Position numbers and translations under genes: made by a program. This document shows positions 1-13,140 of a stretch of DNA of 64,000 nucleotides, piece after piece. The notes below the pieces were generated by a model. That model had not been told where the DNA came from. It searched no databases and saw only the letters and a program-made list of their open reading frames with translations. The stretch's first letter is position 1. The number at the start of each line of letters is the position of its first letter. The stretch comes from an uncultured Lachnospiraceae bacterium (lineage in GTDB: Bacteria > Bacillota > Clostridia > Lachnospirales > Lachnospiraceae). The stretch is from positions 1-64,000 of the forward strand of contig CAMWQW010000011.1 of assembly GCA_947176505.1 (NCBI GenBank). Reading direction: 5' to 3'.

Positions 1-78
1 CTCACGGGCTTTCGCGTTCCGCTTCCCCGCGCTGCCCGCTCGCCTCCGCTTCGCTCCTTCTCGCTCACGGGCTTTCGC
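1..78. repeat. GC-rich segment with a 15-bp direct repeat
   Basis: The 15-mer CTCACGGGCTTTCGC occurs at 1-15 and again at 64-78, exactly 63 bp apart. The segment between them is much richer in G+C than the flanks. On the minus strand one frame stays open and would read as Arg/Lys/Ala/Glu-rich low-complexity peptide, but no start is visible. The rest of the stretch to 226 holds nothing I can name. It may be the edge of a dispersed repeat or of a gene outside the window. Confidence 0.5.
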
Positions 79-226
79 CCTATCATCCTATAATCTGTCA
101 AAATCGACTGCAAGCAGTCATTTTGCCATCTCATAGTCTGGCAGCGCTCAATGCTTACGTGAACATTATATCCCATTTTTATTGTCTCCACAACTAATTA
201 TTCTTGTGCGGACTGCAAATTGATTG

Positions 227-733
227 TTATTTGTCTTCTGTTTCCTGCACGATTTTACGAAGCTCTTTTTCTTGTTTGTTCCTAATCCTCAGCTCTTTAA
301 AAAAAGTCGTCAGCATGTGTGTGCATTCTTCCGCAAGCACTCCCCTTGTAACCTGTACCTGATGATTAAATTCAGGCATCTCCAAAATGTTCAAAATAGA
401 ACCGCCGCAGCCCGCCTTAGGATTCATGCTTCCCATGACCACTTCCGTGACCCGCGCCTGTACGATAGCTCCCGCGCACATCTGACATGGTTCCAACGTT
501 ACATACAACGTACATCCTTCCAGCCGCCAGTCACCCATCTTCTTACTCGCTTTATTGATCGCAGTGATTTCGGCATGAGCAAGCGTATTCTTGTCAGTGT
601 TTCGCCTGTTATATCCTCTGCCGATAATTTTATCCTGATAGACAATCACGCAGCCAATGGGCACTTCTCCAAGTTCGTATGCTTTTTTTGCCTGTTTCAG
701 CGCCTCTTTCATATATCTCTCATCTTGTGTCAT
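227..733 (-). CDS. tadA: tRNA-specific adenosine deaminase TadA
   Basis: 168 residues, the usual length for bacterial TadA. It deaminates adenosine-34 of tRNA-Arg(ACG) to inosine in the cytoplasm, which is needed to read CGN codons. The cytidine-deaminase zinc fold is clear: HAE at residues 53-55 supplies the zinc histidine and proton-shuttle glutamate, and PCQMC at 82-86 supplies the two zinc cysteines. The N-terminal stretch with GEVPIGCVIV is typical of the family. An AGGAG lies about 12 nt before the ATG, slightly long but acceptable. The gene is divergent from the tRNA-Ser gene. Confidence 0.95.
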   Translation of the reverse strand: MTQDERYMKEALKQAKKAYELGEVPIGCVIVYQDKIIGRGYNRRNTDKNTLAHAEITAINKASKKMGDWRLEGCTLYVTLEPCQMCAGAIVQARVTEVVMGSMNPKAGCGGSILNILEMPEFNHQVQVTRGVLAEECTHMLTTFFKELRIRNKQEKELRKIVQETEDK

Positions 734-776
734 AGCCGTGCCATCTCCTAAAAATAAAAAGTTTTAAGAAAAATAG

Positions 777-805
777 TGGACATTCGCCGCAATTCAACTT
801 ATAAT
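777..805 (+). promoter_or_regulatory. Sigma-A-type promoter of tRNA-Ser
   Basis: TGGACA at 777-782 and a perfect TATAAT at 800-805 are separated by 17 bp. The expected start point is about 5 bp upstream of the mature tRNA 5' end, as is usual for single tRNA genes. Confidence 0.75.
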
Positions 806-816
806 CTTACTCGTAC

Positions 817-902
817 GGAGTTGTATCGAAGTGGTCATAACGGGGCGCACTCGAAATGCGTTAGCCCTCCGGGGCACGAGGGTTCGAATCCCTCCAACTC
901 CG
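817..902 (+). tRNA. tRNA-Ser(CGA)
   Basis: An 86-nt class II tRNA. The acceptor stem GGAGTTG (817-823) pairs with CAACTCC (895-901), and the discriminator base is G, as expected for serine. The anticodon stem GCGCA/TGCGT encloses the loop CTCGAAA, giving anticodon CGA (codon UCG). A long variable arm and the T-loop GGTTCGAATCC are present. CCA is not encoded; the sequence runs straight into a terminator. Confidence 0.95.
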
Positions 903-907
903 CTTTG

Positions 908-934
908 AAGCCGAAGCATAGCTTCGGCTTTTAT
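908..934 (+). terminator. Rho-independent terminator after tRNA-Ser
   Basis: Inverted arms AAGCCGAAG and CTTCGGCTT with a short loop are followed by a T-rich tract. It starts 6 nt after the tRNA. Confidence 0.85.
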
Positions 935-1025
935 TTGTCAATTTTGTCACCTCATATACATTATATCGGTGCCCCGATAATAGGGCAATAAAAAGTTATT
1001 TCGCGATACTCTGCCTGTACATTCG

Positions 1026-1127
1026 TCATAAATTCTCATCAAGAAAATATCCCATCACCACTCCGACCCCAAAAACCGCCACCGTAAAAAGACCATATCT
1101 CAATACCAATATTATAATAAAATCCAT
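1026..1127 (-). CDS. 33-residue single-pass membrane micropeptide
   Basis: A short frame begins with ATG at 1127, preceded by GGAGGAGAAAACT, an excellent SD at good spacing. The product is a single hydrophobic helix (about residues 3-27) with an arginine at residue 10 and an acidic tail ending DENL. It lies downstream of the terminator that closes the phosphatase operon, so it is probably a separate transcript. I do not recognise the family. The strong SD and transmembrane (TM) composition argue for expression, but no function can be assigned. Confidence 0.5.
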   Translation of the reverse strand: MDFIIILVLRYGLFTVAVFGVGVVMGYFLDENL

Positions 1128-1169
1128 AGTTTTCTCCTCCCTTTAAAATCTGCCCCTGCCGGATAGGCA

Positions 1170-1207
1170 GCAAAAAGAGACGCGAATCCGAAAATCCGTG
1201 TCTCTTT
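1170..1207 (-). terminator. Terminator of the DUF2589/phosphatase operon
   Basis: Arms AAAGAGAC and GTCTCTTT enclose an 18-nt loop that itself contains ATCCG/CGGAT complementarity. On the minus strand the hairpin ends in a T5 run. It lies about 15 bp past the stop at 1222. Confidence 0.75.
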
Positions 1208-1221
1208 CATTAACACTATAG

Positions 1222-1851
1222 CTACAGCTCCTGCTGAGCAAGATCAATATCCCGCTGGCTCAATACATTGTCATTATAATAAACCATCCTGTATTTATTA
1301 TTGTCGCTGTCAGATAAATGATACCCTATGCCCACAACATCAAAAATCAGTTGATAGTCTGTATCACCTATCTTGATTGTAAAATTACTTTGGTCAACTG
1401 CAACCCCGTCGATTATGCTATGCTCCGTGACTTTCACCTTTGCTCTCATAGGCGTATTCGTATAAATATGTATTACCTCAACCGCCTCAGCCTGTTGTCC
1501 GTTTTGCAGTTTCGTCAGTTCCGCCTGAGTTAACGCATAGATTCTGAAAAACAAGCTCGCACTCTCTCTTTTTTTCCTTCGATTTCCTCGAGATATATGA
1601 AACAGGTAGCTCCCTCCTCGCTTAATCGGTGAAACAAGACTGTTCAATCCCTGCGCTTCCATTTCGTTTAACACCATTTTTAGAGCTTCCGCGTCAACAT
1701 CATTTGCCACACTGTACGCCATCATCGCCGAATTACTGTCAATACGAGTTCCCGATTCCACATAAATATTTTGATAAAATGTTAAGTTTGTCGGCGGTGT
1801 ATTTAAATCCAGATTGCACATCGCCAATGCCTGTAATTGTATTTGTACCAT
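1222..1851 (-). CDS. Unknown protein, last gene of the DUF2589/phosphatase operon
   Basis: 209 residues from the ATG at 1851, chosen because GGAGAG lies 7 nt upstream. A longer frame would start at 1935, overlapping the phosphatase stop, but has no good SD. No signal peptide or TM helix is seen. The protein appears mixed alpha/beta with a basic, serine-rich middle patch (GNRRKKRES) and a C-terminal half rich in beta-type sequence. I do not recognise the family. Its place after the PP2C gene, before the terminator at 1170-1207, suggests that it works with the operon, perhaps as a client or effector. That is inference. Confidence 0.75.
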   Translation of the reverse strand: MVQIQLQALAMCNLDLNTPPTNLTFYQNIYVESGTRIDSNSAMMAYSVANDVDAEALKMVLNEMEAQGLNSLVSPIKRGGSYLFHISRGNRRKKRESASLFFRIYALTQAELTKLQNGQQAEAVEVIHIYTNTPMRAKVKVTEHSIIDGVAVDQSNFTIKIGDTDYQLIFDVVGIGYHLSDSDNNKYRMVYYNDNVLSQRDIDLAQQEL

Positions 1852-1931
1852 AATTTTACTCTCCTTTTTATCCTTTATTTGTTGTCCTGTTTTCTGCCAA
1901 CGGCAGTATTGTTTCTTTCGTCCGATAGTTT

Positions 1932-4556
1932 TCATTCTTCTGATAACTTGTAAACCGTCAATCTGTTTCTGCCATCGACATATTCATACTCTACTTTGTC
2001 CATTCTCTTCTTTACCATATAAATGCCAAGACCTCCCTCCCTTCTTCTGCCAAGCATCTGTGTCACGTCGGGGTCCGGTCTCTTCAGCGGGTCATAGGGA
2101 ATGCCGTCGTCCTCGAAATACAAAATTATTTTCTGTCCTATGATTGTGCCGTTTTCTTCCTTATCATTGATACTGATTCCCAGCTTCACTTCCGTTGCAC
2201 CACTGTAATAACATATATTGGAAAAAATCTCATCCACTGTCACATGAATCTTAACCGCCGTCTTAACAGATACATCCCTTTCTTCTAACGCAGACTCCAC
2301 AAAGTCAATAAAGTCCTGCATATTTTCCATAACGGGAATTCCGGTCTTTTCCTCAAACCCTCCGCCTCTCCATGTAACCGCCAGCATGGTGATATCATCG
2401 AATTGAGGCTCTTCCTGACAAAAATCGTCCACAGCTTTCCACAACACGGCAAGAAGTTCTCTCGGCGACATATTTCCCGCTTCTTTGACTGTTTTCTTCA
2501 ATCGCTCCTCTCCGTACATATTCTGCTGTGAATCGTTTGCTTCCGTCACACCGTCGGTATAAAGAAGCAGCATATCGCCTTTGCCCAGTTTAAGCTTCCC
2601 TTGTCTGTAGGTGGTATCTTCCATTCCCGCCAGCATCATACCGCTAAATGTTGTATCATATTCGCTTTCTCCGCTCTTCCTGATCACAAGCGGTCTGCAA
2701 TGCCCGGCATTCACGAAGTCCACCTCACCATTTGCAATGTTTAGCACCCCGATCCACGCAGTGACGAACATCCCGTCTTTATTGTTATCACATAGGCTTC
2801 TGTTGACTTCCTCCACCGCCCGCGACAATTCACGTTCTTTTCTTCCAAGTCTCATCAACCTGCTGCGGATCATCATTCGTGACACTACCATAAAAAGCGC
2901 TGCTGGAACTCCTTTACCGGACACATCTGCTATGACAAGCGCCAGACGTTCCTCGTCCAGCAGAAAGAAGTCATAGAAATCTCCGCCTACACCTTTCGCC
3001 GCTATCATAGACGCCGCAAGCACAAAATCTTCTCTGTTTGTAAACATCCTTTCAGCGTCAGGGAGCATATCCGCCTGCAGTCCGGACGCCACTTGAATCT
3101 CTGTTCGGATACGCTCCTTTTCCGTCGTGACGTAAGAAAGATTCTCTACATATTCCTCGATCTGGTCTATCATGTCATTAAATGCTTCGCCCAAATCCTC
3201 TATCTCATCCCCGGTCTTTACACTGATTCTCTGTCCGAAATCACTTCCGTCCCAACTCAGCACCTCTTCCGTAAGACTGCATATCGGTTCCGTCAGTTTC
3301 ATGGAAAACATTGTTCCGGATATGCATACAAGCAGTGTGACACACACAAGCGCCACAACAAATGCCAGCATTACACCCCGAATTGCTTCATCCTGTTTAT
3401 CATCCAGCTCATCCGACAATGCCAGTATCGCTGACTGGCTTTCCTTTGCCGGCGCAATGACCTTCTCCTCCTCAAGCACCGTGACAAGGCTCCATCCCAG
3501 ATGCTTGAGCGGTGCATAGGCAAGATAAACCTCCCTGCCGTCCAATGTCAGCTCCACAGAGTCGGTGTCTCCGGAAACCATACCTGCTGCCGCCTGTGCC
3601 AGCATCATGTTACTGCTTTCCCTAAGGTCTACAATCTGTTCGGCGTATGCCGCAGTCTCTCCATCCGGTTCACCCGACACAATCACCTGTCCGTCTTCAT
3701 TGACCAGAAAGGCATAACCGCCCTCCCCGATATCTATCCCCAGCACCGCGTTATTAATTGTCTCCAGATAAGAACCGACTCCCGCGACTGCTACTACCTT
3801 TTCACCACGATATACCGGACTTGCGCACACAATACAGTCGCCACCTCCGTGGACATCTCTGATCACATCCGTATAGACCACCTGTCCGCTCCCTATTTCT
3901 TTGGCTCGCTTATACCATTGCCTGTCCTGCGCCTCAAAAAGCAGTTGGCGATTGCGGTCTGCATTTGCATCCGTGGTATTATACTTACTGTAAGGAATAT
4001 AGTCTGCTTGAATCATCCAGCCGCTCTCTGTGGCGATGTAAGCTGAAGATACCATGCTGTTGTTGGCGTTGTACTGCACAAGCATGTCCTGTAAATTGCC
4101 AAGCTTCAGCACTTCCTCCGTATACATCGGTATACCGGTCTCCGGATCCACCGTGTCTTTTAGCTTTTCCGACCATATAAGCTGCGCCGCAAGTTGATTG
4201 GACTCCGGAATCGGAAGGGCTACTTTTCTGTCCGGGTACTGCTCCGGCTGTTCATAGATATCCCTTGCCTGTGCCGCGATACTCAGCACATATGTCTCCA
4301 CTGCGGCAAACTTTTCTTCGATTACCGCTGCCTTTTGTACGGTAATTCTTCGCAGATTGTCTACTGCCAAATCCTCCAGCGCCTCCTCGGCATCATTCGC
4401 AGCGCTCTCGCCCAATTCTTTACCGCTGTCCGCAGAAATCCGTTTCATTGACCATAGACTGTAGGCGCTGATTGTTCCTGCAACCAGCATGGCGGTTGAC
4501 ACCATCAGCAGTAGCAGTCTGTTTATCTTATCACCTATCTTTTTCTTGCCCGCCAT
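1932..4556 (-). CDS. Membrane PP2C phosphatase (RsbU/SpoIIE type) with fused RsbW-like kinase domain
   Basis: 874 residues. In order: TM helix (about 13-35), large extracytoplasmic dCache-like sensor (about 40-390), second TM (394-415), HAMP (416-470), linker helix, SpoIIE-family PP2C phosphatase and HATPase domain. PP2C metal motifs are visible: GGDFYDF (524-530), VIADVSGKG (541-549), YTDG (666-669) and FDD (719-721). The C-terminus (about 745-874) is an RsbW/SpoIIAB-type ATPase, with DEIFSN at 775-780 as the N box and GGLGIYMV at 841-848 as the G box. It should dephosphorylate the STAS protein encoded immediately upstream on a sensed extracellular cue, and the fused domain could rephosphorylate it or bind a sigma factor. 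It overlaps the STAS gene by 26 bp. Confidence 0.9.
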   Translation of the reverse strand: MAGKKKIGDKINRLLLLMVSTAMLVAGTISAYSLWSMKRISADSGKELGESAANDAEEALEDLAVDNLRRITVQKAAVIEEKFAAVETYVLSIAAQARDIYEQPEQYPDRKVALPIPESNQLAAQLIWSEKLKDTVDPETGIPMYTEEVLKLGNLQDMLVQYNANNSMVSSAYIATESGWMIQADYIPYSKYNTTDANADRNRQLLFEAQDRQWYKRAKEIGSGQVVYTDVIRDVHGGGDCIVCASPVYRGEKVVAVAGVGSYLETINNAVLGIDIGEGGYAFLVNEDGQVIVSGEPDGETAAYAEQIVDLRESSNMMLAQAAAGMVSGDTDSVELTLDGREVYLAYAPLKHLGWSLVTVLEEEKVIAPAKESQSAILALSDELDDKQDEAIRGVMLAFVVALVCVTLLVCISGTMFSMKLTEPICSLTEEVLSWDGSDFGQRISVKTGDEIEDLGEAFNDMIDQIEEYVENLSYVTTEKERIRTEIQVASGLQADMLPDAERMFTNREDFVLAASMIAAKGVGGDFYDFFLLDEERLALVIADVSGKGVPAALFMVVSRMMIRSRLMRLGRKERELSRAVEEVNRSLCDNNKDGMFVTAWIGVLNIANGEVDFVNAGHCRPLVIRKSGESEYDTTFSGMMLAGMEDTTYRQGKLKLGKGDMLLLYTDGVTEANDSQQNMYGEERLKKTVKEAGNMSPRELLAVLWKAVDDFCQEEPQFDDITMLAVTWRGGGFEEKTGIPVMENMQDFIDFVESALEERDVSVKTAVKIHVTVDEIFSNICYYSGATEVKLGISINDKEENGTIIGQKIILYFEDDGIPYDPLKRPDPDVTQMLGRRREGGLGIYMVKKRMDKVEYEYVDGRNRLTVYKLSEE

Positions 4557-4896
4557 GCGTGTTTACCTTTCCTTTCACCACCCTCTTTCCATTCTCATTC
4601 CACACTTCCAGAAATTCCAGAAAGCCGGTAATATATAAGGTATCTTTCACTTCTTCATTGACATTGCATAGAACTAATTTACCTTTTTGGCTCCCCATTG
4701 TTTTATATGTACCAAGCAGCACGCGCAGCCCTGCGGACGAAATATACACCACATCCTTAAAGTCCAGTGTCAGCTCTGTCAGACCTTCTATCCTTTCTAA
4801 TACAAACCGTTCTAATTCCGGCGCTGTAGACGCATCGATGCGTCCGCTGACATACAATGTCAGCTTTTCGTTTCCATTTTTCTCTTCAATCGTCAT
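4531..4896 (-). CDS. STAS-domain anti-sigma-factor antagonist (RsbV/SpoIIAA-like)
   Basis: 121 residues from ATG 4896, preceded by GGGGCAGGG. A longer in-frame start at 4926 lacks an SD. The STAS signature is clear: a beta strand with SGRIDAST near the N-terminus, then DFKDVVYISSAGLRVLLG, where the serine pair before AGLR is the regulatory phosphorylation site of RsbV-type proteins. The tail is extended and basic. Its ATG overlaps the stop of the upstream gene (ATGA), and its 3' end overlaps the phosphatase start, so translation is coupled. It is the expected substrate of the adjacent phosphatase/kinase fusion. Confidence 0.9.
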   Translation of the reverse strand: MTIEEKNGNEKLTLYVSGRIDASTAPELERFVLERIEGLTELTLDFKDVVYISSAGLRVLLGTYKTMGSQKGKLVLCNVNEEVKDTLYITGFLEFLEVWNENGKRVVKGKVNTHGGQEKDR

Positions 4897-5180
4897 AATC
4901 CCTGCCCCTTCTCGTCGCCTGCCCATGCCGGTTTCCTCGTAAATCCCACATGATAAGAAACTTTTTCCATAGTCAGTTCGTGCTCTCCGACCTGATAGCG
5001 TCCTATGGAAACGTCTTTTGCTATGATGGTGCCTCTGGGATAATCGTTCAGGCAGCGGTTTAACAAGTTCATCTGGGCTTCTTTATCCCGATCCGACAGC
5101 GGCATATTAGGGTTCACGCTGCCAATCGTCACTAATTTCACGTAGTGGAAATCCGACAATTCTACTTTCTTCTGGCTCAT
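4893..5180 (-). CDS. Small unknown protein of the DUF2589 operon (95 aa)
   Basis: 95 residues with ATG at 5180 and AGAGGG upstream. No TM or signal sequence. The sequence looks like a compact folded domain (HYVKLVTIGSVNPNMP, then a helix, then YPRGTIIAKDVSIGRYQVGE), ending in a Pro/Gly-rich tail. I do not recognise it. It is translationally coupled to the STAS gene by a 4-bp ATGA overlap, which implies a fixed stoichiometric relationship with the partner switch. It could be an adaptor between the DUF2589 proteins and the STAS/phosphatase pair, but nothing in the sequence proves that. Confidence 0.75.
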   Translation of the reverse strand: MSQKKVELSDFHYVKLVTIGSVNPNMPLSDRDKEAQMNLLNRCLNDYPRGTIIAKDVSIGRYQVGEHELTMEKVSYHVGFTRKPAWAGDEKGQGL

Positions 5181-5205
5181 CTCATATACCCTCTTTCTGA
5201 GAAGA

Positions 5206-5222
5206 CAGTCCGCAAGGGACTG
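5206..5222 (-). other. Intercistronic stem-loop
   Basis: CAGTCC and GGACTG pair around a GCAAG loop in the 74-bp gap between the large DUF2589 gene and the 95-residue gene. There is no T-run, so it is more likely an RNA-processing or stability element than a terminator. It could set different expression levels for structural and regulatory genes of the operon. Confidence 0.45.
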
Positions 5223-5254
5223 CCTTCATCATCTTCATGATTATGGCTTGTCCA

Positions 5255-6502
5255 CTACTGCTGACCACTCTTATCAGGCAGTGCTCTGCCGGATATTGCA
5301 TCGCTGTACTCTGATTTCTTGTTGATCAGTTCCGTCTCAATATCGCTTGCATTCTTCTGGTTTTTGACTGCAGTGTTCTGCGCTGCAAGCATCGCATCAT
5401 ACTGGGATTCTTCTTTCGCGTAGTCAACCGTACCTTCGATGGTTTCTTTCTTATTGTCGCCCTCTCCTTCCATCCCTTTCTTCAGACCTTTCAGTGCAAA
5501 GAGACTGGAAACATCCGTCGACTCGCTTCCGCTGTCGGCAATCAATTTCACATAATCCGATGCCTGCGTCTGGAAGTTACTCCATGACTGATTAATTTCT
5601 TCCAGATACTGCGTATAATTTGCCGTAGCTGTTTCCGCCGCCGCTTTCTCATCTTTCGCCTTCTTTAATGATTGTGTTTGCTCATCACTGGGACTTGCCA
5701 CCTTTTCTAATTTCTTAATCTCCTCATCATACTGTGACGGGTCAGACTCCCTCAGTTTTCTGCTGAGCAATTCCCTGTAGCTGTTCAACTGAACATCCGC
5801 TACTTTTTTAAGGCGAATGATGCTTGCACTCACTCCGTCCTGTGCTGCGCTCAGTCGGCTTTCAATCTGGCTGATTTCCGCCCTAAGGCTTTTCAGTCGT
5901 TCTGCCTTCGCTTTTGCCTGTCCTGCTAAGTCCTGCCCGTTACCGTCCTTTATGTCGCTGCTTAACAGTTCAGGCGCCACATTTGCCGCCATCATATCCA
6001 ATACTCTGGCGAGTCCTTCAGGAATACCGTGGTTGGTCGCACGGACATCCACATGATATTTCGCGGAATTATCTGAGCTTCTCGTGTTGGATTGATGGGA
6101 ACTGACACTACCGGTAACATTGACTTTCACAATACCAAAATTCGCTGAACCGCTTACGGTCGCACTTAAATCCGTCGCCGACTCCTGTCTCTCACTCTGT
6201 TTCACTTCCATATCAAATAGAATATTCACTTCATCAATCTGAAGATTCGGAATCGGGACGATTGCAAGCATCGGCACGCTGACCTTCATTTCATCCAGCG
6301 TACTCGTACCGTCCTCATTGGGGGTACGTTTCTGATAACCGAACGCAACATTACGCACTTTACCCCCAGCATCAAATCCCACACGGTTGATAAAATCCGC
6401 CGTAGAATTAGCTAACAGCGTACTGGCATCCGCCGCCGCGCTCAAAGGTCCTCCGATTAGCTGATCCATCTGTAATCCTGCAAATTGTTCTGCTATTGCC
6501 AT
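5255..6502 (-). CDS. DUF2589-family protein with coiled-coil extension
   Basis: 415 residues. Residues 1-130 match my recollection of the DUF2589 pattern: LIGGPLSAAADAS, a TADFINRVGFD segment, and the core VSVPMLAIVPIPNLQIDEV at about 74-92 followed by a beta strand. The C-terminal two thirds (about 185-400) is charged and helical, with heptad-like stretches, and no TM or signal peptide. GAGGAATAAG supplies the SD. DUF2589 has no experimentally fixed role that I know of. This paralogue and the shorter one upstream share the VP-LL-I-PI-NL-D core, suggesting that they co-assemble. It may be a structural or scaffold subunit, but that is inference only. Confidence 0.85.
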   Translation of the reverse strand: MAIAEQFAGLQMDQLIGGPLSAAADASTLLANSTADFINRVGFDAGGKVRNVAFGYQKRTPNEDGTSTLDEMKVSVPMLAIVPIPNLQIDEVNILFDMEVKQSERQESATDLSATVSGSANFGIVKVNVTGSVSSHQSNTRSSDNSAKYHVDVRATNHGIPEGLARVLDMMAANVAPELLSSDIKDGNGQDLAGQAKAKAERLKSLRAEISQIESRLSAAQDGVSASIIRLKKVADVQLNSYRELLSRKLRESDPSQYDEEIKKLEKVASPSDEQTQSLKKAKDEKAAAETATANYTQYLEEINQSWSNFQTQASDYVKLIADSGSESTDVSSLFALKGLKKGMEGEGDNKKETIEGTVDYAKEESQYDAMLAAQNTAVKNQKNASDIETELINKKSEYSDAISGRALPDKSGQQ

Positions 6503-6562
6503 AATCTTATTCCTCTTTCCTTTCTGTTACTGTCTTAACAACATTGTTTTACTGTTTCATTT

Positions 6563-6823
6563 TTACTGCTGTCGCTTCACCGGCATGGTATAACCCTCAT
6601 CCGGATAGTGGATACCGGTAACTGTAATACTATCCACATACAGAACTCTTTCCGGAATCCAAAACCCATTCCACGAATCCTGTCCATAGTCCCCATACTC
6701 TGTCATTAGCCGCAGATTCAATTCTCTGCGCAGTTTTTCGGTATAGTGGAGAATCACACGACCTTCTTGTTGCCGCTCATTCTCTTTACTTGTTGTTACT
6801 ACCTTCGCACCATTGTTATTCAT
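6563..6823 (-). CDS. Small unknown protein between two DUF2589 genes (86 aa)
   Basis: 86 residues from ATG 6823, which overlaps the 3' end of the upstream DUF2589 gene by 8 bp. A TTG 24 bp further upstream is also in frame. The N-terminus is polar and disordered-looking. The body has RVILHYTEKLRRELNLRL, probably a helix, then an aromatic-rich stretch with WNGFWIPERVLYVDSITVTG. No TM or signal. I do not recognise it. Overlap with one DUF2589 gene and tight linkage to the next suggest an accessory subunit. Confidence 0.7.
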   Translation of the reverse strand: MNNNGAKVVTTSKENERQQEGRVILHYTEKLRRELNLRLMTEYGDYGQDSWNGFWIPERVLYVDSITVTGIHYPDEGYTMPVKRQQ

Positions 6824-7631
6824 AATCTTTATCCAGCCCGTATTCAATCTCCCTGTTCATGATTCGCTCCTGATACTCCATAATGCGGTTTGCAATATTT
6901 GCCTGCGCCATCAAATACTTCTCCTTATCAAATCCCTTGACCGTATCTGCAAAAGCGCTCTTTCCAATCTGCTCCATCTGCTCCTGATCCGCAATCATAT
7001 CCGAAATCTTCCGGTAGAGTCTCTTAAGTCTCTTAATCTTGTTCTTGAGTCCCGTAGTCTCCTGCCAGATTTCTTTCTGTTCATCACTTTCCAAGTTACC
7101 GTCTATCGCCACCGGTGTCGTATCCAGCTTCTTTGTAATCGGATTGGAACTAAACATATCTGTCAGACGCATGACTCCCTCTGTCGCAGGAAGCGAACTA
7201 ATCCGCATCTTATAAGTCACACGCGGTAGGAAATCACTTTCCCGCTGTTCCGGCGAACATATCCGTCCACTGATGGAATACAGCCCCTGCTCTCCTTTCT
7301 CAGCTTTAATTTCTACATCGAAATCAATTTCTGCTTTATCCACATTCAGGTTTGTAATCGGTATGATGGATAGAAGCGGCACTTGTATCTGAAGATTATC
7401 TACGTTGTAGCCTTCATTGCTTTCCGGGCGTACTTGTTCGTATGCAAGATTAATATTATTTAATTGTACGGTTTCTTCTGTCCCCGTCCGCTTGATAGTT
7501 CCCATGTTCTTGATCGTCTCCACTACCCGGGCGCGAAGCTGCTCATTTGACAGCGCAAGTGCATGAAGCGGTGCATAGACGAGATCGTCTAAAGGTATAA
7601 ATTCACTGTAATCGTACTTATGATCCTCCAA
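6816..7631 (-). CDS. DUF2589-family protein, short paralogue
   Basis: 271 residues with a TTG start at 7631 behind AAAGGAG at 9-nt spacing. The DUF2589 core is recognisable at about 79-110 (QIQVPLLSIIPITNLNVD, then an alternating beta strand), preceded by a helical N-terminus with FIPLDDLVYAPLHALALSNEQL. The C-terminal part is charged and helical, including a stretch with LKRLYRKISDMIADQEQMEQI. No export signal. It begins 38 bp after the amidase-lysozyme gene and overlaps the next small gene. Likely a partner of the larger DUF2589 protein. Confidence 0.8.
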   Translation of the reverse strand: MEDHKYDYSEFIPLDDLVYAPLHALALSNEQLRARVVETIKNMGTIKRTGTEETVQLNNINLAYEQVRPESNEGYNVDNLQIQVPLLSIIPITNLNVDKAEIDFDVEIKAEKGEQGLYSISGRICSPEQRESDFLPRVTYKMRISSLPATEGVMRLTDMFSSNPITKKLDTTPVAIDGNLESDEQKEIWQETTGLKNKIKRLKRLYRKISDMIADQEQMEQIGKSAFADTVKGFDKEKYLMAQANIANRIMEYQERIMNREIEYGLDKDYE

Positions 7632-7669
7632 TGACGGAATCTCCTTTCTCTACTCTCAGAACCGGACTT

Positions 7670-8698
7670 CTAACTCAAGAATAATTTTCTTTCCGCTTCC
7701 CGCCTGCGCTGCAAGCCTTCATTTACTTCTTCATTAACCAAAATGTATGAAAGCATCGCCTCTGCAACATCTGCTGCATCCCTGCCAGTCACCAAATCCC
7801 TCAATCTTCCGCTGCCGCGGTTGTAACAAAAGCTTGTCAGCGCATCAAACTGGTTCTGATTGACAGGGAAATTAATCACTTTTCTCTCGATGTATGTATT
7901 GACATACCCGGTATATTCTTTGAGATCTTCGTATAACATGGCTCGTGCCGCTTCCTGTGAAGGAAGCTTATCTCCCGGTTTAACGCCTCGTGTGTGACCA
8001 TATCCAATCGTCCATACTCCTGCCGCACACTGATAAGCAGATAAGCGGCATCCCTCGAATTGCATAATCAATCTCACACCTTCCTCAGAGATATCCATCC
8101 GCAAAGGATTTACTTCTGCCTTAACTTCACCTCTATGCATTGCAATCTCAACATCGTGTCTGAATCCATCCATCGTGTAACCGCTTTGCAGTCCATTCCA
8201 TAAATGAGACGGATCCTCATGCCCAGAAGCAATCTTTCTTGCGTGTCCTTCTTTATGGCTGATAATGACGCCTTCTTCGAGCGGATCCAGCCTATACTCC
8301 CGGCACAGAAAAGCAAACAATTCCACCGCTGTATCATAAGTCCGTTTGACAACCGCCATTGCGTCATTTCTGTCCAGACAATTAAAAGACGCGCCTTTGG
8401 TGTACTGAATGCCGGACGGTTCACACATTTCCACCCCGATGTGTGTGTTATTTGCCGCACCGCCGCAATGCCATCCTCTGTACTCCCACGGGAGTGTCTG
8501 GTACACCTTACCCGTGATGCCGTCTATAAAGGCATGCACGCATCTCTTTTTCTCCATCGGTTTGTTCCATTCCTTAACAAAAACCTCTGCGGATGGCTGA
8601 TTGCAGCCAACGCTGTGCAGCATAAGACCTTGCACTGCGATTTTCTGTCCTGCCTTATAGCAGGAATTGTTTGTCAGAATACTCTGCACAATTTCCAT
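7670..8698 (-). CDS. Two-domain peptidoglycan hydrolase: N-acetylmuramoyl-L-alanine amidase plus GH24-type lysozyme
   Basis: 342 residues from ATG 8698, chosen because GGAGGG lies 6-7 nt upstream; the frame runs open to 8779 without another SD. The N-terminal Amidase_2-like domain (about 1-185) has a zinc-type LMLHSVG, then HIGVEM and ISHKEGHARK with DPSHLW. The C-terminal domain carries the endolysin signature E-x8-C-x5-T within FEGCRLSAYQCAAG plus TIGYGHT, as in lambdoid phage lysozymes. It cleaves both the stem-peptide amide and the glycan bond. There is no signal peptide or SAR helix, so release would need a holin-like or unknown route. First gene of the DUF2589 operon. Confidence 0.88.
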   Translation of the reverse strand: MEIVQSILTNNSCYKAGQKIAVQGLMLHSVGCNQPSAEVFVKEWNKPMEKKRCVHAFIDGITGKVYQTLPWEYRGWHCGGAANNTHIGVEMCEPSGIQYTKGASFNCLDRNDAMAVVKRTYDTAVELFAFLCREYRLDPLEEGVIISHKEGHARKIASGHEDPSHLWNGLQSGYTMDGFRHDVEIAMHRGEVKAEVNPLRMDISEEGVRLIMQFEGCRLSAYQCAAGVWTIGYGHTRGVKPGDKLPSQEAARAMLYEDLKEYTGYVNTYIERKVINFPVNQNQFDALTSFCYNRGSGRLRDLVTGRDAADVAEAMLSYILVNEEVNEGLQRRREAERKLFLS

Positions 8699-8753
8699 TT
8701 GTTTCCCTCCTTTTCCGAAAAACCGATTTTGATGTCCGATTTTTCTCTGTGGA

Positions 8754-8774
8754 AACATAATACGATATTGTGTT
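8754..8774 (-). promoter_or_regulatory. Palindromic operator over the -10 of the amidase-lysozyme/DUF2589 operon
   Basis: On the minus strand the arms AACACAATA and TATTATGTT flank a TCG core, with one mismatch from perfect symmetry. TATTAT in the right arm is a good -10 box (5/6); the -35 (TTAAAT at 18-bp spacing) is weak. It lies 56-76 bp upstream of the ATG at 8698. The same palindrome recurs at 8931-8951 in the same position relative to an opposing promoter. The regulator is unknown. Confidence 0.65.
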
Positions 8775-8919
8775 AACACGATTTAACAACAACTCCACGA
8801 TTTTATGGGCATTTCTCCATGACACATTACAGCCGTCCCTAATTCATTACCTCCTATTTACCTCTTTTATCAATGTTAAATTTGCTTTACATTCGTCGTT
8901 TATTTTTTCAAATCAGTAC

Positions 8920-8951
8920 TTGACATACGAAACAAAATATCGTATTTTGTT
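8920..8951 (+). promoter_or_regulatory. Promoter with perfect palindromic operator, divergent from the DUF2589 operon
   Basis: TTGACA at 8920-8925 and TATTTT at 8943-8948 are 17 bp apart. The perfect palindrome with arms AACAAAATA and TATTTTGTT and a TCG core spans 8931-8951, covering spacer and -10. It reads toward the 47-residue membrane ORF with a leader of about 160 nt, although another TATAAT stands at 9055-9060 closer to that gene. A stem-loop TTAGC/GCTAA is in the leader near 9000. Nothing else recognisable is in 8775-9115. Confidence 0.65.
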
Positions 8952-9115
8952 AACCGCTAAAATTTCGTTAAGCCGGTGCTAATAATCTGTTTCCATTTCG
9001 TTTAGCTTACGCTAAGAAAGCCTCTTTCCTATTTTCCGAACCTTTGTCATTCCCTATAATAATGAAGAATTATGAATAGAAGCATAGGAAAAGAAGAAAG
9101 CGAGGAAAGTGTCTC

Positions 9116-9259
9116 ATGAATATCGGAATGTTAATTATTTGCGTCGTAGGCGGTCTGACAGGTCTTATCAGCTCCGCATATCTGTTAGTCAGTATGCCCG
9201 TAATAATCGTATGGAAAATCTATCGCCGCATTCGTTTAGGATACTCACTGTATCAATAA
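9116..9259 (+). CDS. 47-residue single-TM membrane protein
   Basis: ATG at 9116 with GAGGAAAG about 8 nt upstream. The product has one long hydrophobic stretch (about residues 4-34, GMLIICVVGGLTGLISSAYL onward) and a basic C-terminal tail with KIYRRIRLGYS. It is the only gene downstream of the operator-bearing promoter facing away from the amidase-lysozyme operon. Size and topology fit a small holin-like, toxin-like or KdpF-like peptide, but no family is recognised. A holin role would explain release of the signal-less lysozyme; that is speculation. Confidence 0.5.
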   Translation: MNIGMLIICVVGGLTGLISSAYLLVSMPVIIVWKIYRRIRLGYSLYQ

Positions 9260-9286
9260 CAAAGCGAAAACACCCCATATATGACA

Positions 9287-9333
9287 TAAAAAGAGCAAGC
9301 CACGGAGAACTATATCTCCCATGACTTGCTCTT
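9287..9333 (-). terminator. Terminator between convergent small genes
   Basis: AAGAGCAAG and CTTGCTCTT pair around a loop containing a second GGAGA/TCTCC stem. The minus strand has a T-run, so it best terminates the two tiny ORFs at 9613-9410. It could also end the 47-residue gene on the plus strand. Confidence 0.7.
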
Positions 9334-9409
9334 AAATTATTTTCCATTCCTTTTACCAAACTAAACATATCTCAGCCTTCACCTTACGGCTACAGTCATA
9401 TCAGTCCAA

Positions 9410-9499
9410 TCATTTCCTATTCACAATTAATGAATATACAAAACATCCTCCCAGCGATACAAATACCATCCCTAATATGATAATTTCTACAATGCCCAT
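9410..9499 (-). CDS. KdpF-like 29-residue membrane peptide
   Basis: ATG at 9499 with GGAGGG about 8 nt upstream. The sequence MGIVEIIILGMVFVSLGGCF is followed by VYSLIVNRK. The C-terminal half closely resembles E. coli KdpF (a VFLLLG-YLVYALI pattern, recalled from memory), and the length of 29 residues is the same. It is downstream of another 27-residue TM ORF and diverges from KdpDE-like genes, but no kdpABC genes are in the window. It may be an orphan KdpF or an unrelated regulatory membrane peptide. Confidence 0.5.
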   Translation of the reverse strand: MGIVEIIILGMVFVSLGGCFVYSLIVNRK

Positions 9500-9529
9500 T
9501 TCCTTGCCCTCCATTCTACTTATCAGACC

Positions 9530-9613
9530 TTACTTATGTTCATACCAGATTCCACCAAAAAAACCGATTACGACCAAAATGATTGAAATAACTGACCATA
9601 CATCTATCTGCAT
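9530..9613 (-). CDS. 27-residue membrane micropeptide
   Basis: ATG at 9613 behind GGAGGAAATCAAA, a very strong SD. One hydrophobic helix (IISIILVV-like, residues 8-22) follows an acidic/aromatic start (MQIDVW) and ends in a charged YEHK tail. It is separated by 30 bp from the KdpF-like ORF, which has its own SD, so the two probably form a transcript divergent from the KdpD-like gene. Family unknown. Confidence 0.45.
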   Translation of the reverse strand: MQIDVWSVISIILVVIGFFGGIWYEHK

Positions 9614-9817
9614 TTTGATTTCCTCCTTCATACCGTATTACAAGCAAAATACTATCATGTCGTCAAATAATTTTACAGTTTATCACGCCTTCTTTAGCGT
9701 ATATTTAGCGTTTTCTTGATGTTTTCTTATCTCTTTCTTAACACCTTTTTAGCACCGCCCACTGTTCCCCTTTTGCATAAAAAAAGGTATAATGTACGAT
9801 ACAGGAGACCCAAGCTT

Positions 9818-10894
9818 ATGCCTTCAAATATGAAACAAATTTTCACTAAGAAAAACATTATAGTAACACTGTCCGGTCTCATCATTGCAACCGTTTTTGC
9901 ATTTCTTTTCTCTTACTGTGTACCGGAAAATTCGGGCAATATTGCGCTAATCTATATTCTTGCGTTGATTGTCATCGTCCGATACACTGACGGCTATCTG
10001 CCGGGAGTCATTTCGTCTGTTGTTGCAGTTGTATGCGTAAACTTTCTGTTTACCTATCCTTATTACGAACTGAACTTTACCCTTTCCGGCTACCCTATCA
10101 CGTTTCTAGAAATGCTCGGTGTTACTTTGCTTACAAGCACCATGACAGCCAGTATGAAGCAGCAGGCACAGATGATTGCCGAAAAGGATAAATTACTGTC
10201 AGAGACGGAGAAAGAAAAAATGCGTGCCAATCTGCTGCGCGCCATATCACACGATCTGCGCACACCGCTGACCGGAATCATTGGCGCAAGTTCCTCCTAT
10301 CTGGACAACGACGTTCTGCTTTCTGACCAAGAAAAAATTGCCATTGTAACCCATATACGCGAGGATGCCGACTGGCTCCTGAATATGGTGGAAAATCTCC
10401 TCTCCGTAACCCGTATCCAAGATCAGACTTCTGCAGTCAAAAAGACCGACGAGTCTGTGGAAGAGATTGTCTCAGCCGCTATTAACCGCCTGAAAAAAAG
10501 GCTGCCGGAAGCCTCAGTCAACGTCTCCGTTCCTGACGAGCTTCTTATTCTTCCTATGGATGCCATTCTCATAGAGCAGGTTCTCATCAACCTATTGGAA
10601 AACGCCATCGTCCACTCTCAGAGCAGACAGCCGATTCTTTTTTATGTGGACGCTGATAACGAAAATGTCGCTTTCCATGTAAAAGATTACGGCATCGGTA
10701 TTGACCCGGAGCGGCTAAAAAATATCTTTGACGGCAACTCTTATATCGGGAACAGTGAATCCGACTCCAATAAAGGAATGGGTATCGGATTATCTATATG
10801 CAAGACAATTATCACCGCGCACAACGGTACGATAAACGCCAAGAATCATGAGCAGGGTGCCGAGTTCTATTTTACCCTGCCTAAAGGAGACTGA
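9818..10894 (+). CDS. KdpD-like sensor histidine kinase lacking the N-terminal KdpD/USP domains
   Basis: 358 residues from ATG 9818, chosen for CAGGAG about 10 nt upstream; the frame is open from 9716 but lacks an SD. It starts with four TM helices of the DUF4118 (KdpD membrane) type containing IALIYILALIVIVRYTDGYLPG. A coiled linker, then HisKA with SHDLRTPLTGIIGA (phospho-His) and HATPase with an N box (NLLENAIVHS) and G boxes (DYGIGI, GMGIGLSICK) follow. The large cytoplasmic turgor/K+-sensing N-terminus of full KdpD (about 900 aa) is absent. A TATAAT at 9788-9793 precedes it. The gene for the cognate regulator starts 42 bp downstream. Confidence 0.88.
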   Translation: MPSNMKQIFTKKNIIVTLSGLIIATVFAFLFSYCVPENSGNIALIYILALIVIVRYTDGYLPGVISSVVAVVCVNFLFTYPYYELNFTLSGYPITFLEMLGVTLLTSTMTASMKQQAQMIAEKDKLLSETEKEKMRANLLRAISHDLRTPLTGIIGASSSYLDNDVLLSDQEKIAIVTHIREDADWLLNMVENLLSVTRIQDQTSAVKKTDESVEEIVSAAINRLKKRLPEASVNVSVPDELLILPMDAILIEQVLINLLENAIVHSQSRQPILFYVDADNENVAFHVKDYGIGIDPERLKNIFDGNSYIGNSESDSNKGMGIGLSICKTIITAHNGTINAKNHEQGAEFYFTLPKGD

Positions 10895-10936
10895 GCCGGC
10901 ACAGGGAAACATTCCAAAGACTGGAGGATTCATGCA

Positions 10937-11644
10937 TTGAACTTAAAACATGATATTTTGCTGATAGAAGACGAGAAAAACATTTGCAATTTCATTGCAA
11001 CTACACTGCGCACACAGGATTATAAGGTGAGCTTCGCAAGTGATGCAGCAAACGGTCTGTCGCTTGCCGCATCAGGATGCCCCGACTTAATCTTGCTAGA
11101 CTTGGGGCTGCCGGATATGGACGGCATTGACGTGATACGCAGCATCCGGGAATGGAGCAACATTCCGATTATTGTCATTTCAGCCAGAACACAGGAAAAA
11201 GAAAAAGTGGAAGCATTGGACGCAGGTGCCGATGATTATATCACAAAGCCCTTCGGCACCTCCGAACTGATGGCAAGAATCCGCACCGCCCTACGCCGCT
11301 CTTCCATGAGCAGCGCTCCAATCTTAGGGCAAAACAGATATACTGCTAAGAATTTGATTATTGATTATGAAAAACATATCATTACAGTGGATGGCAATAT
11401 TGTCCACTTTACGCAGATTGAATATAAGATATTAACTTTTCTGGCGCGCAACGCCGGTAAGGTAATCACATACGACACTTTAATCACCCATGTATGGGGT
11501 CCTTATGCCGACAGTAATAATCGCATTTTACGTGTCAATATGGCAAATATCCGCAGAAAGTTGGAACATAACCCTGCCGACCCGCAATATATTTTCACAG
11601 AAATCGGCATCGGCTACCGAATGATTGACAATGAAAACGCATGA
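10937..11644 (+). CDS. OmpR/PhoB-family response regulator, KdpE-like
   Basis: 235 residues. TTG at 10937 is the start: GGAGG lies 9 nt upstream, and the nearby ATG at 10932 hits a stop at once. The receiver domain (1-120) has the acidic pocket IEDE, phospho-acceptor in LILLDLGLPDMDG, and a Lys in ITKPFG. The C-terminal winged helix (about 130-230) has YDTLITHVWG and RVNMANIRRKLE, typical of KdpE. It forms a pair with the upstream kinase. No kdpFABC operon is visible, so the target may be elsewhere or may be the small divergent ORFs. Confidence 0.88.
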   Translation: MNLKHDILLIEDEKNICNFIATTLRTQDYKVSFASDAANGLSLAASGCPDLILLDLGLPDMDGIDVIRSIREWSNIPIIVISARTQEKEKVEALDAGADDYITKPFGTSELMARIRTALRRSSMSSAPILGQNRYTAKNLIIDYEKHIITVDGNIVHFTQIEYKILTFLARNAGKVITYDTLITHVWGPYADSNNRILRVNMANIRRKLEHNPADPQYIFTEIGIGYRMIDNENA

Positions 11645-12024: not shown

Positions 12025-13140
12025 TTACAATTCCACCTTCCTCAGATAATATCCGAATTCTCCGGCGCGCACATTGCCGCCCGGACATTCAAAAGCCTCA
12101 AATCCAAACATCAGCGCCACCATTTTTTCTCTCTCGTAAAACACTCCCGGTACACCAAGATAATAGTCCTGCTCTTTTCCTAAAATTACGTAGCGATAAT
12201 TATAAAATCCGTGCAATAGAAAACTATTATTGACCAGATGCTGATATTTTGACTGTAAAATTACAAAGTCCTTCGGCTCCAATTTGACATAGACTCTCTC
12301 ATCACCATATGGATGTATGTTTTCGTATGTATCTAAAATCTGTTCCCACTTGTCCTCTTTCAAATTATACTGCGGTATATTTTGTTGTGCACTCATTTTG
12401 TCATCCGATGTACGCGGCAACAACTCCTCCTTTATCAAAATCTTCTCCCTCTTATCCGGGCGTCTTACAAGATTTACTTCTCGTGCTGCTTCCGGCTCCT
12501 TTACAGGATTTCTTCCCTCTGACATACTTGATTCACTTACAATATTTACCTCCTTTGGCACACTCGGATTGCTTACAGGATTTACCTCCCTTGGCACATT
12601 TGGCTCGCTTACAGGATTTACCTTCCTTGGCACATCCGGTTCGCTTACAAGATTTACTTCCCTTAGCGCACCCGGTTCGCTTACAAGATTTACCTCCCTT
12701 GGCACATCCGGTTCGCTTACAGGATTTACTTCCCTTGGCACACTCGGCTCGCTTACAGAGCCTGACTCTCTTAACACACTCTCTCTGACTGCCGATTCTG
12801 TCTTTCCCTGTCCGCTCTCTTCGGAAGCAGTTCTGCTCCTGCCTTCCAGATAATACCCGCTAGGAAGCATGACCTTCAAGATAACTTTGTCTGCCGGTTT
12901 TGTCAAATTTTCTTCCCAGCTTCCTCTTCCTTCTCGAACTGCGATGCCATCAATTTCCTTCCATCCGTCACCGTCATAGACACGAATCGGAAACCTGCCG
13001 CTTATACTGTGAGGAATATTCTGTATTTTTAAATGCAGTCTTCCATCTCCTTCCCGATTCTCCACCTTTAAGAATCCGGCGCTTCCTATTCGGCTTTCTT
13101 CTTTGTACAATCCCATATATATAATTTCTTTGCTGTACAC
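12025..13140 (-). CDS. Unknown protein with a 12-residue tandem-repeat linker (possibly DUF6128)
   Basis: 371 residues with a GTG start behind GGGAGG. It has three parts: an N-terminal beta-rich domain (1-100) with VYDGDGWKEIDG and MLPSGYYLEGR; a repeat linker (about 129-224) of eight degenerate VSEPxVPREVNP units; and a C-terminal domain (about 262-371) with FVILQSKYQHLVNNSFLLHG, LGVPGVFYEREKMVALMFG and a conserved-looking FECPGG. The C-terminal part resembles what I remember as DUF6128 of Lachnospiraceae, tentatively. There is no TM or signal peptide. Function unknown; it might link two binding modules over a flexible spacer. Confidence 0.75.
   Translation of the reverse strand: MYSKEIIYMGLYKEESRIGSAGFLKVENREGDGRLHLKIQNIPHSISGRFPIRVYDGDGWKEIDGIAVREGRGSWEENLTKPADKVILKVMLPSGYYLEGRSRTASEESGQGKTESAVRESVLRESGSVSEPSVPREVNPVSEPDVPREVNLVSEPGALREVNLVSEPDVPRKVNPVSEPNVPREVNPVSNPSVPKEVNIVSESSMSEGRNPVKEPEAAREVNLVRRPDKREKILIKEELLPRTSDDKMSAQQNIPQYNLKEDKWEQILDTYENIHPYGDERVYVKLEPKDFVILQSKYQHLVNNSFLLHGFYNYRYVILGKEQDYYLGVPGVFYEREKMVALMFGFEAFECPGGNVRAGEFGYYLRKVEL
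12469..12756 (-). repeat. 36-bp tandem repeats inside the 371-residue gene
   Basis: About eight head-to-tail 36-bp units encode the 12-residue motif VSEPxVPREVNP. The central five units are nearly identical in DNA (for example GGATTTACCTCCCTTGGCAC), and the outer ones have decayed. Unit length is a multiple of three, so copy-number changes keep the frame. Confidence 0.9.

What the first reader, a model, noticed from the sequence alone, without database searches (positions are those of the whole stretch)
1222..8698. Operon coupling two DUF2589 proteins, a two-domain wall hydrolase and a membrane partner switch
Seen: eight tightly packed minus-strand genes, several overlapping, in the order amidase-lysozyme, DUF2589, 86-aa, DUF2589, 95-aa, STAS, PP2C/HATPase fusion, unknown. 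Known: RsbU/V/W-type modules control sigma factors or enzymes; DUF2589 has no established function that I know of. Inference: the switch may gate assembly or release of a DUF2589-based structure that needs local peptidoglycan cutting, such as a surface machine, secretion device or programmed lysis. This is the window's best candidate for an undescribed system.
Basis: partly seen in the sequence, partly recalled or inferred. Interest (0 to 1): 0.85.

Follow-up and report, generated by a model that had tools for sequence, protein, structure and literature searches.

The report
Switchable toxin-release operon in gut bacteria
A conserved gene set in gut bacteria joins a phage-like wall-cutting enzyme, two proteins of unknown fold and, in relatives, toxin-like cargo genes to a DNA promoter that looks able to flip, which suggests that a few cells are switched on to release or deliver the cargo.

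Summary
The eight genes exist as described and form a conserved system. Of 80 related loci, 77 keep the second DUF2589 gene, 69 the 95-aa gene, 57 the amidase-lysozyme, 47 STAS and 45 PP2C. Two features were missed. First, a promoter lies in a 156-bp segment between 21-bp inverted repeats (8754-8774, 8931-8951). The layout recurs in 36 loci, and the -35 box points away from the operon in 36 of 36; a tyrosine recombinase lies just upstream in 18 of the 28 found first. This looks like an invertible promoter, seen only OFF. Second, genes inserted in some related operons resemble effectors or lectins: C58 protease, CdtB-like nuclease, glycosyltransferase, jacalin, ricin-B, fascin. Two loci from other lineages have muramidases nearby. 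Best reading: a phase-variable, endolysin-assisted release or delivery module, working like a type 10 secretion system but with no holin in the window operon and a DUF2589/95-aa core whose fold I could not place. Inversion, lysis and secretion were not observed. DUF2589 occurs in one held paper, without a function.

The parts
8754..8774 (.). operon-proximal arm of the inverted repeat; read on the minus strand it holds a -10-like TATTAT (8762-8757)
   Evidence: exact -10 position counted by eye
8775..8930 (.). segment between the arms, proposed to invert (156 nt)
8931..8951 (.). distal arm of the inverted repeat
   Evidence: at 2 or fewer mismatches the genome holds only the two arms
8920..8948 (+). 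promoter-like TTGACA-17-TATTTT pointing away from the operon (OFF state); 10 of 12 matches, tied second among 18 promoter-like sites in 1-10000, a number that does not exceed shuffles (17.7 expected), so the support is the layout shared with other loci
7670..8698 (-). Amidase_2 + Phage_lysozyme endolysin, 342 aa, no strongly hydrophobic 19-mer
6816..7631 (-). DUF2589-a, 271 aa, TTG start
6563..6823 (-). 86-aa protein of a loosely conserved family present in 42 of 80 loci
5255..6502 (-). DUF2589-b, 415 aa, long C-terminal helical hairpin in the model
4893..5180 (-). 95-aa protein, conserved partner of DUF2589 in Lachnospiraceae, Treponema, Vibrio and a deltaproteobacterium
4531..4896 (-). STAS-domain protein (anti-sigma-factor-antagonist-like)
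1932..4556 (-). membrane dCache-HAMP-PP2C(SpoIIE)-HATPase protein, 874 aa
1222..1851 (-). orphan 209-aa protein in a place where some relatives carry cargo-like genes; possible cargo (inference)

Best explanation
A release or delivery module for cargo proteins that is kept off in most cells. A tyrosine recombinase (encoded next to the operon in many relatives, probably in trans here) inverts the segment 8775-8930 between the repeats. In the OFF state the -35 box faces away. After inversion the -35 would sit 17 bp from the TATTAT in the proximal arm and drive the operon. ON cells make the endolysin, the two DUF2589 proteins, the 95-aa protein, the partner switch and the cargo. The dCache-PP2C-HATPase protein would set the phosphorylation of the STAS protein in response to an outside signal and so gate the last step. 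The endolysin then cuts the wall, and cargo leaves by local wall opening or by lysis of that minority. Shown: gene content, co-conservation, repeat and promoter layout, cargo-type domains in some relatives. Inferred: inversion, the gating step, lysis or secretion, and that DUF2589 with the 95-aa protein forms a pore, scaffold or carrier.
For: Co-conservation: full set (AmiLys, DUF2589 x2, 95-aa, STAS, PP2C) in 28 of 47 loci with enough flank. Switch: inverted-repeat pair in 24 of 55 upstream regions against 0.1 expected in shuffles; 36 loci with a -35 box (31 exact TTGACA) 17 bp from the distal-arm hexamer, and the hexamer of the unused proximal arm closer to TATAAT than the distal one in 27, equal in 7, worse in 2. 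Recombinase gene (Phage_integrase 1.9e-23 for the L054 copy) just before the repeats in 18 of 28 loci and within 9 kb in 23 of 80; own genome has a copy elsewhere, 52% identical to that of L054. The 8 loci with a LytTR-type regulator have no such repeat. Cargo-type domains: Peptidase_C58 8e-13, Gly_transf_sug 1e-6, Exo_endo_phos 7.7e-7, Fascin 9.6e-14, Peptidase_C39_2 4.9e-9, CdtB chains 1.5e-5, jacalin lectins 5.7e-17, RicinB 1.8e-32. Peptidase_C58 was found in 0 of 299 family genomes and the jacalin profile in 1 of 299, weakly. Muramidase GH108 about 0.7 kb before DUF2589-b in L102 and PF11860 about 2 kb after it in L019. Precedent: a minority of Y. entomophaga cells lyse to release toxins by a type 10 system (PMC10847048; abstract, introduction and discussion read).
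Against: No locus was found in the ON orientation: 0 of 36; a pattern search of 397 family genomes gave two hits, one the OFF locus already seen as L026 and one unrelated. The distal arm also has TATTAT in 13 of 36, so the two arms often do not differ. No holin-like protein in the window operon. Many operons show no recognisable cargo; 14 of 24 hand-picked candidates had no Pfam family above cut-off. The window's own last gene is an orphan. DUF2589 has no informative fold match and residues of about 91-160 are poorly modelled. Loci are related: 13 of the 36, the window included, belong to its genus, so the counts are not independent.
Confidence: 0.5

Rival explanations
1. Non-lytic surface or injection device: the DUF2589 proteins and the 95-aa protein build a structure across the envelope, and the endolysin only makes room for it.
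For: The core (DUF2589 + 95-aa) is kept where the hydrolase differs or is not seen; DUF2589-b has a long helical hairpin; DUF2589 genes also occur in viral contigs, one of them with terminase and capsid genes.
Against: No strongly hydrophobic segment in the core proteins and no secretion family among the eight genes; fold searches gave no informative match (inconclusive).
Confidence: 0.2
2. The repeats are operators for a dimeric regulator, not recombination sites; the promoter serves a leftward or antisense transcript and nothing inverts.
For: Only one orientation seen, 36 of 36; each arm is itself nearly palindromic (by eye).
Against: Tyrosine recombinase just before the repeats in 18 of 28 loci; spirochaete loci with a different arm sequence keep the same -35/arm geometry; the proximal arm keeps a -10-like hexamer with no -35.
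Confidence: 0.13
3. Anti-phage suicide module: a signal triggers endolysin and lysis to stop infection.
For: Endolysin, sensor and tight control; sporadic distribution.
Against: No PADLOC family at E 0.1 except a weak match of the DUF2589-b helical part to LmuB, 1.4e-4; lectin and eukaryote-directed cargo domains do not fit.
Confidence: 0.08
4. Cell-wall remodelling or sporulation-linked operon with an RsbU/V/W-type switch; cargo-like neighbours are coincidental.
For: PP2C and STAS resemble SpoIIE/SpoIIAA-type proteins, below the NCBIfam cut-offs for those two.
Against: Sporadic: 6 of 299 family genomes, 16 of 77 in the genus; C58 and jacalin families were not or hardly found in 299 family genomes; no sigma factor in the operon.
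Confidence: 0.09

Closest known systems
Type 10 secretion system (holin/endolysin/spanin cassettes; YenLC of Yersinia entomophaga, PMC10847048)
   Same: phage-type endolysin encoded with cargo-type genes, proposed expression in a minority, release of folded proteins
   Different: no holin in the window operon and no outer membrane expected in this family, so no spanin; extra DUF2589/95-aa core, partner switch and inverted-repeat promoter
Typhoid-toxin muramidase TtsA with CdtB cargo (recalled, not looked up)
   Same: a GH108 muramidase near DUF2589 in L102 and a CdtB-like gene in L060 echo the two parts
   Different: the two parts are in different loci here; the window hydrolase is amidase + phage lysozyme
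Invertons (invertible promoters with a site-specific recombinase; PMC11892184, seen as a search listing and by a term search without hits)
   Same: inverted repeats round a promoter, recombinase nearby in many loci
   Different: recurs upstream of one operon type in many species, with the -10 inside the arm; only the OFF orientation seen
SiaA/RsbU-RsbV-RsbW partner switches
   Same: dCache/HAMP-PP2C, HATPase and STAS parts
   Different: PP2C and kinase fused in one chain, no sigma factor or diguanylate cyclase in the operon, target unknown

Membership tests
DUF2589 (PF11655) | profile match above the curated cut-off | tested here: met
   56.7 and 141.1 bits against cut-off 23
Type 10 secretion system | endolysin in the operon | tested here: met
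   Amidase_2 + Phage_lysozyme, PHROG endolysin 3.2e-43
Type 10 secretion system | holin in the cassette | tested here: not met
   no 19-mer above 1.6 in seven of eight proteins; only the PP2C sensor has them; no holin family
Type 10 secretion system | release of cargo through lysis or secretion | not testable with these tools
   needs cells
Invertible promoter (inverton) | inverted repeats flanking a promoter | tested here: met
Invertible promoter (inverton) | site-specific recombinase available | tested here: met
   just before the repeats in 18 of 28 loci; in the window's genome only an unlinked copy, 52% identical to that of L054; its action on these repeats is untested
Invertible promoter (inverton) | both orientations observed | tested here: inconclusive
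   0 ON in 36 loci and none in 397 genomes; an assembly shows one orientation per genome and no reads were available
RsbU/V/W-type partner switch | PP2C phosphatase, HATPase kinase and STAS antagonist together | tested here: met
RsbU/V/W-type partner switch | a cognate sigma factor or other known target | tested here: inconclusive
   none among the eight genes; a target elsewhere was not searched for
Known anti-phage defence system | match to a PADLOC system | tested here: not met
   one weak match, LmuB 1.4e-4 on DUF2589-b residues 178-327, among eight proteins

The most novel reading that the evidence does not exclude
DUF2589 proteins and the 95-aa protein form a previously undescribed protein-release machine with relatives in phages, spirochaetes, vibrios and gut Clostridia. 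In gut commensals it is loaded with exchangeable host-directed effectors and lectins and fired only in rare cells that have flipped a recombinase-controlled promoter; the OFF state of every assembly seen would then reflect the rarity or loss of ON cells by lysis.
Probability: 0.3. Interest if true: 0.92.

Novelty: new variant of a known kind. Interest (0 to 1): 0.78.

Why it matters
If true, ordinary gut Lachnospiraceae carry a switchable, cargo-swapping release system with effector-like proteins, a kind of weaponry usually tied to pathogens. It would give DUF2589 a first function, explain how proteins without a signal peptide leave Gram-positive gut bacteria, and make the idea of altruistic release by a minority testable by a simple orientation PCR.

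Tried and rejected
Search for the ON state: a pattern over 397 family genomes gave 2 hits. One, L119, is OFF and by its neighbouring gene is the same locus as L026; the other, L120, has no partner repeat. Of 93 pattern matches examined, only L119 had a partner repeat, so the viral hits are taken as chance.

Anti-phage defence and plain phage remnant (only the endolysin matches phage families well) were considered and set aside. P0008 has no family above cut-off in Pfam and no relative in PDB, plasmids, 60 other genomes or the related loci compared. The cargo family c17 (7 members) has no PDB match, and its one member scanned has no Pfam match. A possible CNF-like reading of the L056 insert was by eye only and found no match. 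HExxH motifs in family c25 were seen by eye; Pfam gave nothing above cut-off for the two scanned.

Limits of counts: the 80 loci are the best 80 of 224 relatives, mostly Lachnospiraceae, so biased to close kin; hydrolase hits in spirochaete loci are only 23-25% identical. The count of 36 needed a -35 box within one mismatch at one arm, and the spirochaete arm sequences were taken from those loci themselves; the 28 needed no promoter. Cargo candidates scanned with Pfam were 24 picked by eye, 23 from the 150 listed and one (L029): 10 of 24 had a family above cut-off, 14 did not. No random control set of neighbours was scanned; the control was the genome base rate, and rang in no genome at all, so it is a weak control. 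L051 and L078 were dropped from the clustering as copies of L014 and L013, but stay in the 80.

Literature: DUF2589 found in 1 paper (passage read), PF11655 in 0. Type 10 secretion: 7 papers listed, one read in part. Searches for an invertible promoter in Lachnospiraceae (1 unrelated) or Clostridia, for PhaseFinder invertons (4 listed), for partner switching with lysis, for phase-variable toxin release (1 review listed) and for CDT with Lachnospiraceae (8 of 20 titles seen) gave no description of this system; PMC11892184 was only term-searched (0 hits).

Full report
OBSERVATION. The window holds eight minus-strand genes in the order given. Domains: amidase plus phage lysozyme; DUF2589; none; DUF2589; none; STAS; dCache-HAMP-PP2C-HATPase; none. 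These are the only two DUF2589 genes found in this genome. The family is sporadic: 6 of 299 genomes of the bacterial family, 2 of 299 in the phylum sample, 16 of 77 in the genus, the window's own genome included each time.

CONSERVATION. A scan of bacterial genomes with a DUF2589-b alignment gave 224 relatives, of which the best 80 were fetched. Within fixed distances on the same strand, 77 of 80 have DUF2589-a, 69 the 95-aa gene, 57 an amidase-lysozyme relative, 47 STAS, 45 PP2C and 42 the 86-aa family; 30 have a further gene after the STAS gene, one member of which has a GNAT match below cut-off. In 47 loci with enough flanking DNA the full set is present in 28. In a clustering over 94 sources, the window included, other genes recur less: recombinase 25, ABC transporters 24 (a large common family), then 11 and 10 for the two-component pair that the window shares with some relatives. 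In the spirochaete loci, Vibrio plasmids, a deltaproteobacterial plasmid and some Lachnospiraceae loci no STAS or PP2C relative was seen, only DUF2589 genes and mostly the 95-aa gene, with or without a wall hydrolase; several of these stretches are cut by contig ends. So the widest core is DUF2589 + 95-aa; the partner switch and the amidase-lysozyme are the edition common in Lachnospiraceae.

HYDROLASES DIFFER. A contig of the viral collection (L102) has a GH108 muramidase about 0.7 kb before DUF2589-b + 95-aa, and the deltaproteobacterial plasmid (L019) a PF11860 muramidase about 2 kb after them. One Vibrio plasmid has an annotated peptidoglycan-binding protein nearby on the other strand; the other shows none in the stretch. 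In six further viral contigs (L103-L108) a DUF2589 gene follows a shorter protein that resembles it by eye. Of the two whose genes were scanned, L105 has a terminase large subunit and a major head protein, L104 a weak holin match. This points to a phage link, not yet to a function.

THE SWITCH. Upstream of the first gene lie inverted repeats 8754-8774 and 8931-8951, 90% complementary, 156 nt apart. At two or fewer mismatches the genome holds only these two arms. The arm core occurs as an inverted pair in 24 of 55 upstream regions of amidase-lysozyme genes, against 0.1 expected from shuffles. In 28 loci found without asking for a promoter, all 28 have GTCAA next to the distal arm. With four spirochaete loci, L015 and three more genus members, 36 loci share the layout (L288 is cut before any DUF2589 gene). 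A -35 box (TTGACA in 31, one mismatch in 5) lies 17 bp from a hexamer in the distal arm and points away from the operon in 36 of 36. The proximal arm, which in this state has no -35 box, carries TATTAT in 25 and TATAAT in 6; the distal arm TATTTT in 18 and TATTAT in 13. The proximal hexamer is closer to TATAAT in 27, equal in 7 and worse in 2 loci (L025, L091). If the segment inverts, the -35 lands 17 bp from the proximal hexamer. The sign test (1.6e-6) treats loci as independent, which they are not: by genome handle or contig length 13 of the 36 are the window or its genus. In one search the one row labelled ON (L015) is OFF, because that operon runs on the other strand; one search corrects this.

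RECOMBINASE. A recombinase gene ends shortly before the repeats in 18 of the 28 loci (9-426 bp) and lies within 9 kb in 23 of 80; the L054 copy is a Phage_integrase protein. The window has none nearby, but its genome has one that is 52% identical to the L054 copy over 269 residues, while the next best is 28%. By eye its catalytic R, HxxR, H and Y residues are present, and no repeat pair was seen in the 3.8 kb round it. Eight loci have a gene of a cluster whose scanned member is LytTR, and none of these has the repeats, as if two kinds of control replace each other.

ALWAYS OFF. No ON molecule was found (36 of 36 OFF). That is the main weakness of the inversion claim. It is also what one would expect if ON cells are few or die. 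The rival, that the nearly palindromic arms are operators, is kept at 0.13.

CARGO. Some relatives carry extra genes in the operon: between switch and hydrolase, between split amidase and lysozyme genes, after the hydrolase, after the 95-aa gene, before PP2C or after it. I picked 24 by eye (23 from the 150, one) and scanned them: 10 have a Pfam family above cut-off, 14 do not. Six have effector- or lectin-type families: L041 Peptidase_C58; L040 Gly_transf_sug (TcdA_TcdB below cut-off); L060 Exo_endo_phos, nearest PDB chains CdtB; L062 Peptidase_C39_2 and C70; L092 Fascin; L015 RicinB. The other four are DUF6765 (L036), DUF4135 (L013) and DUF261 (L015, L071). A family in four loci (one member among the 14) is jacalin-like by profile. 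Annotated neighbours on Vibrio plasmids include a TcdA/TcdB-type glycosyltransferase-domain protein and an M91 peptidase, 6-8 kb away. Base rates: Peptidase_C58 in 0 of 299 family genomes, though that search rang in no genome at all; jacalin profile in 1 of 299, weakly. The window's last gene sits where some relatives have such genes but is an orphan, so calling it cargo is inference.

MECHANISM. No protein of the window operon but the PP2C sensor has a strongly hydrophobic segment, so there is no obvious holin and no obvious export signal for the endolysin. Either DUF2589 with the 95-aa protein opens the membrane, or the endolysin leaves by another route. The DUF2589-b model is poor in about residues 91-160 and the first 10; the C-terminal half is a confident helical hairpin. 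Fold searches did not help. The partner switch has phosphatase, kinase and STAS parts and by eye intact motifs; its target is unknown.

COMPARISON. It would work like a type 10 secretion system: endolysin, co-encoded cargo, probably a minority of cells. The window operon fails that family's holin criterion, so it is not filed as a member. The published example shows lysis of specialised cells releasing toxins (PMC10847048: abstract, introduction and discussion read). I found no description of a DUF2589 operon of this kind in the held library.

VERDICT. A real, conserved system, undescribed as far as these searches reach, with a likely phase switch. Release or delivery of cargo is the best reading (0.5); the promoter switch on its own I hold at about 0.85.

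Noticed in passing
L293 (G779:C53) 1889-2071 and 2072-4168: A repeat pair of the same type, OFF layout, lies upstream of a 698-aa helical protein that by eye resembles alpha-pore-forming toxins; no DUF2589 was found in that genome.
   Followed up: partly
window 817-903: tRNA-Ser (cga) gene lies about 320 bp beyond the end of the operon, a common kind of integration site; no island ends were sought.
   Followed up: no
window 9716-11644: Sensor kinase and response regulator pair on the + strand; the OFF promoter points toward it. Shared with some relatives.
   Followed up: no
window 12025-13140: 371-aa protein with, by eye, a repeat region rich in PREVNPVSEP-like units.
   Followed up: no
L013 4896-6497: DUF4135 (LanM-type dehydratase-like) protein encoded inside a DUF2589 operon.
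   Followed up: no
L015, L017, L018, L090, L092, L093: Substrate-binding-protein-like genes recur near DUF2589: annotated in L017 and L018, by cluster and by eye in the others.
   Followed up: no
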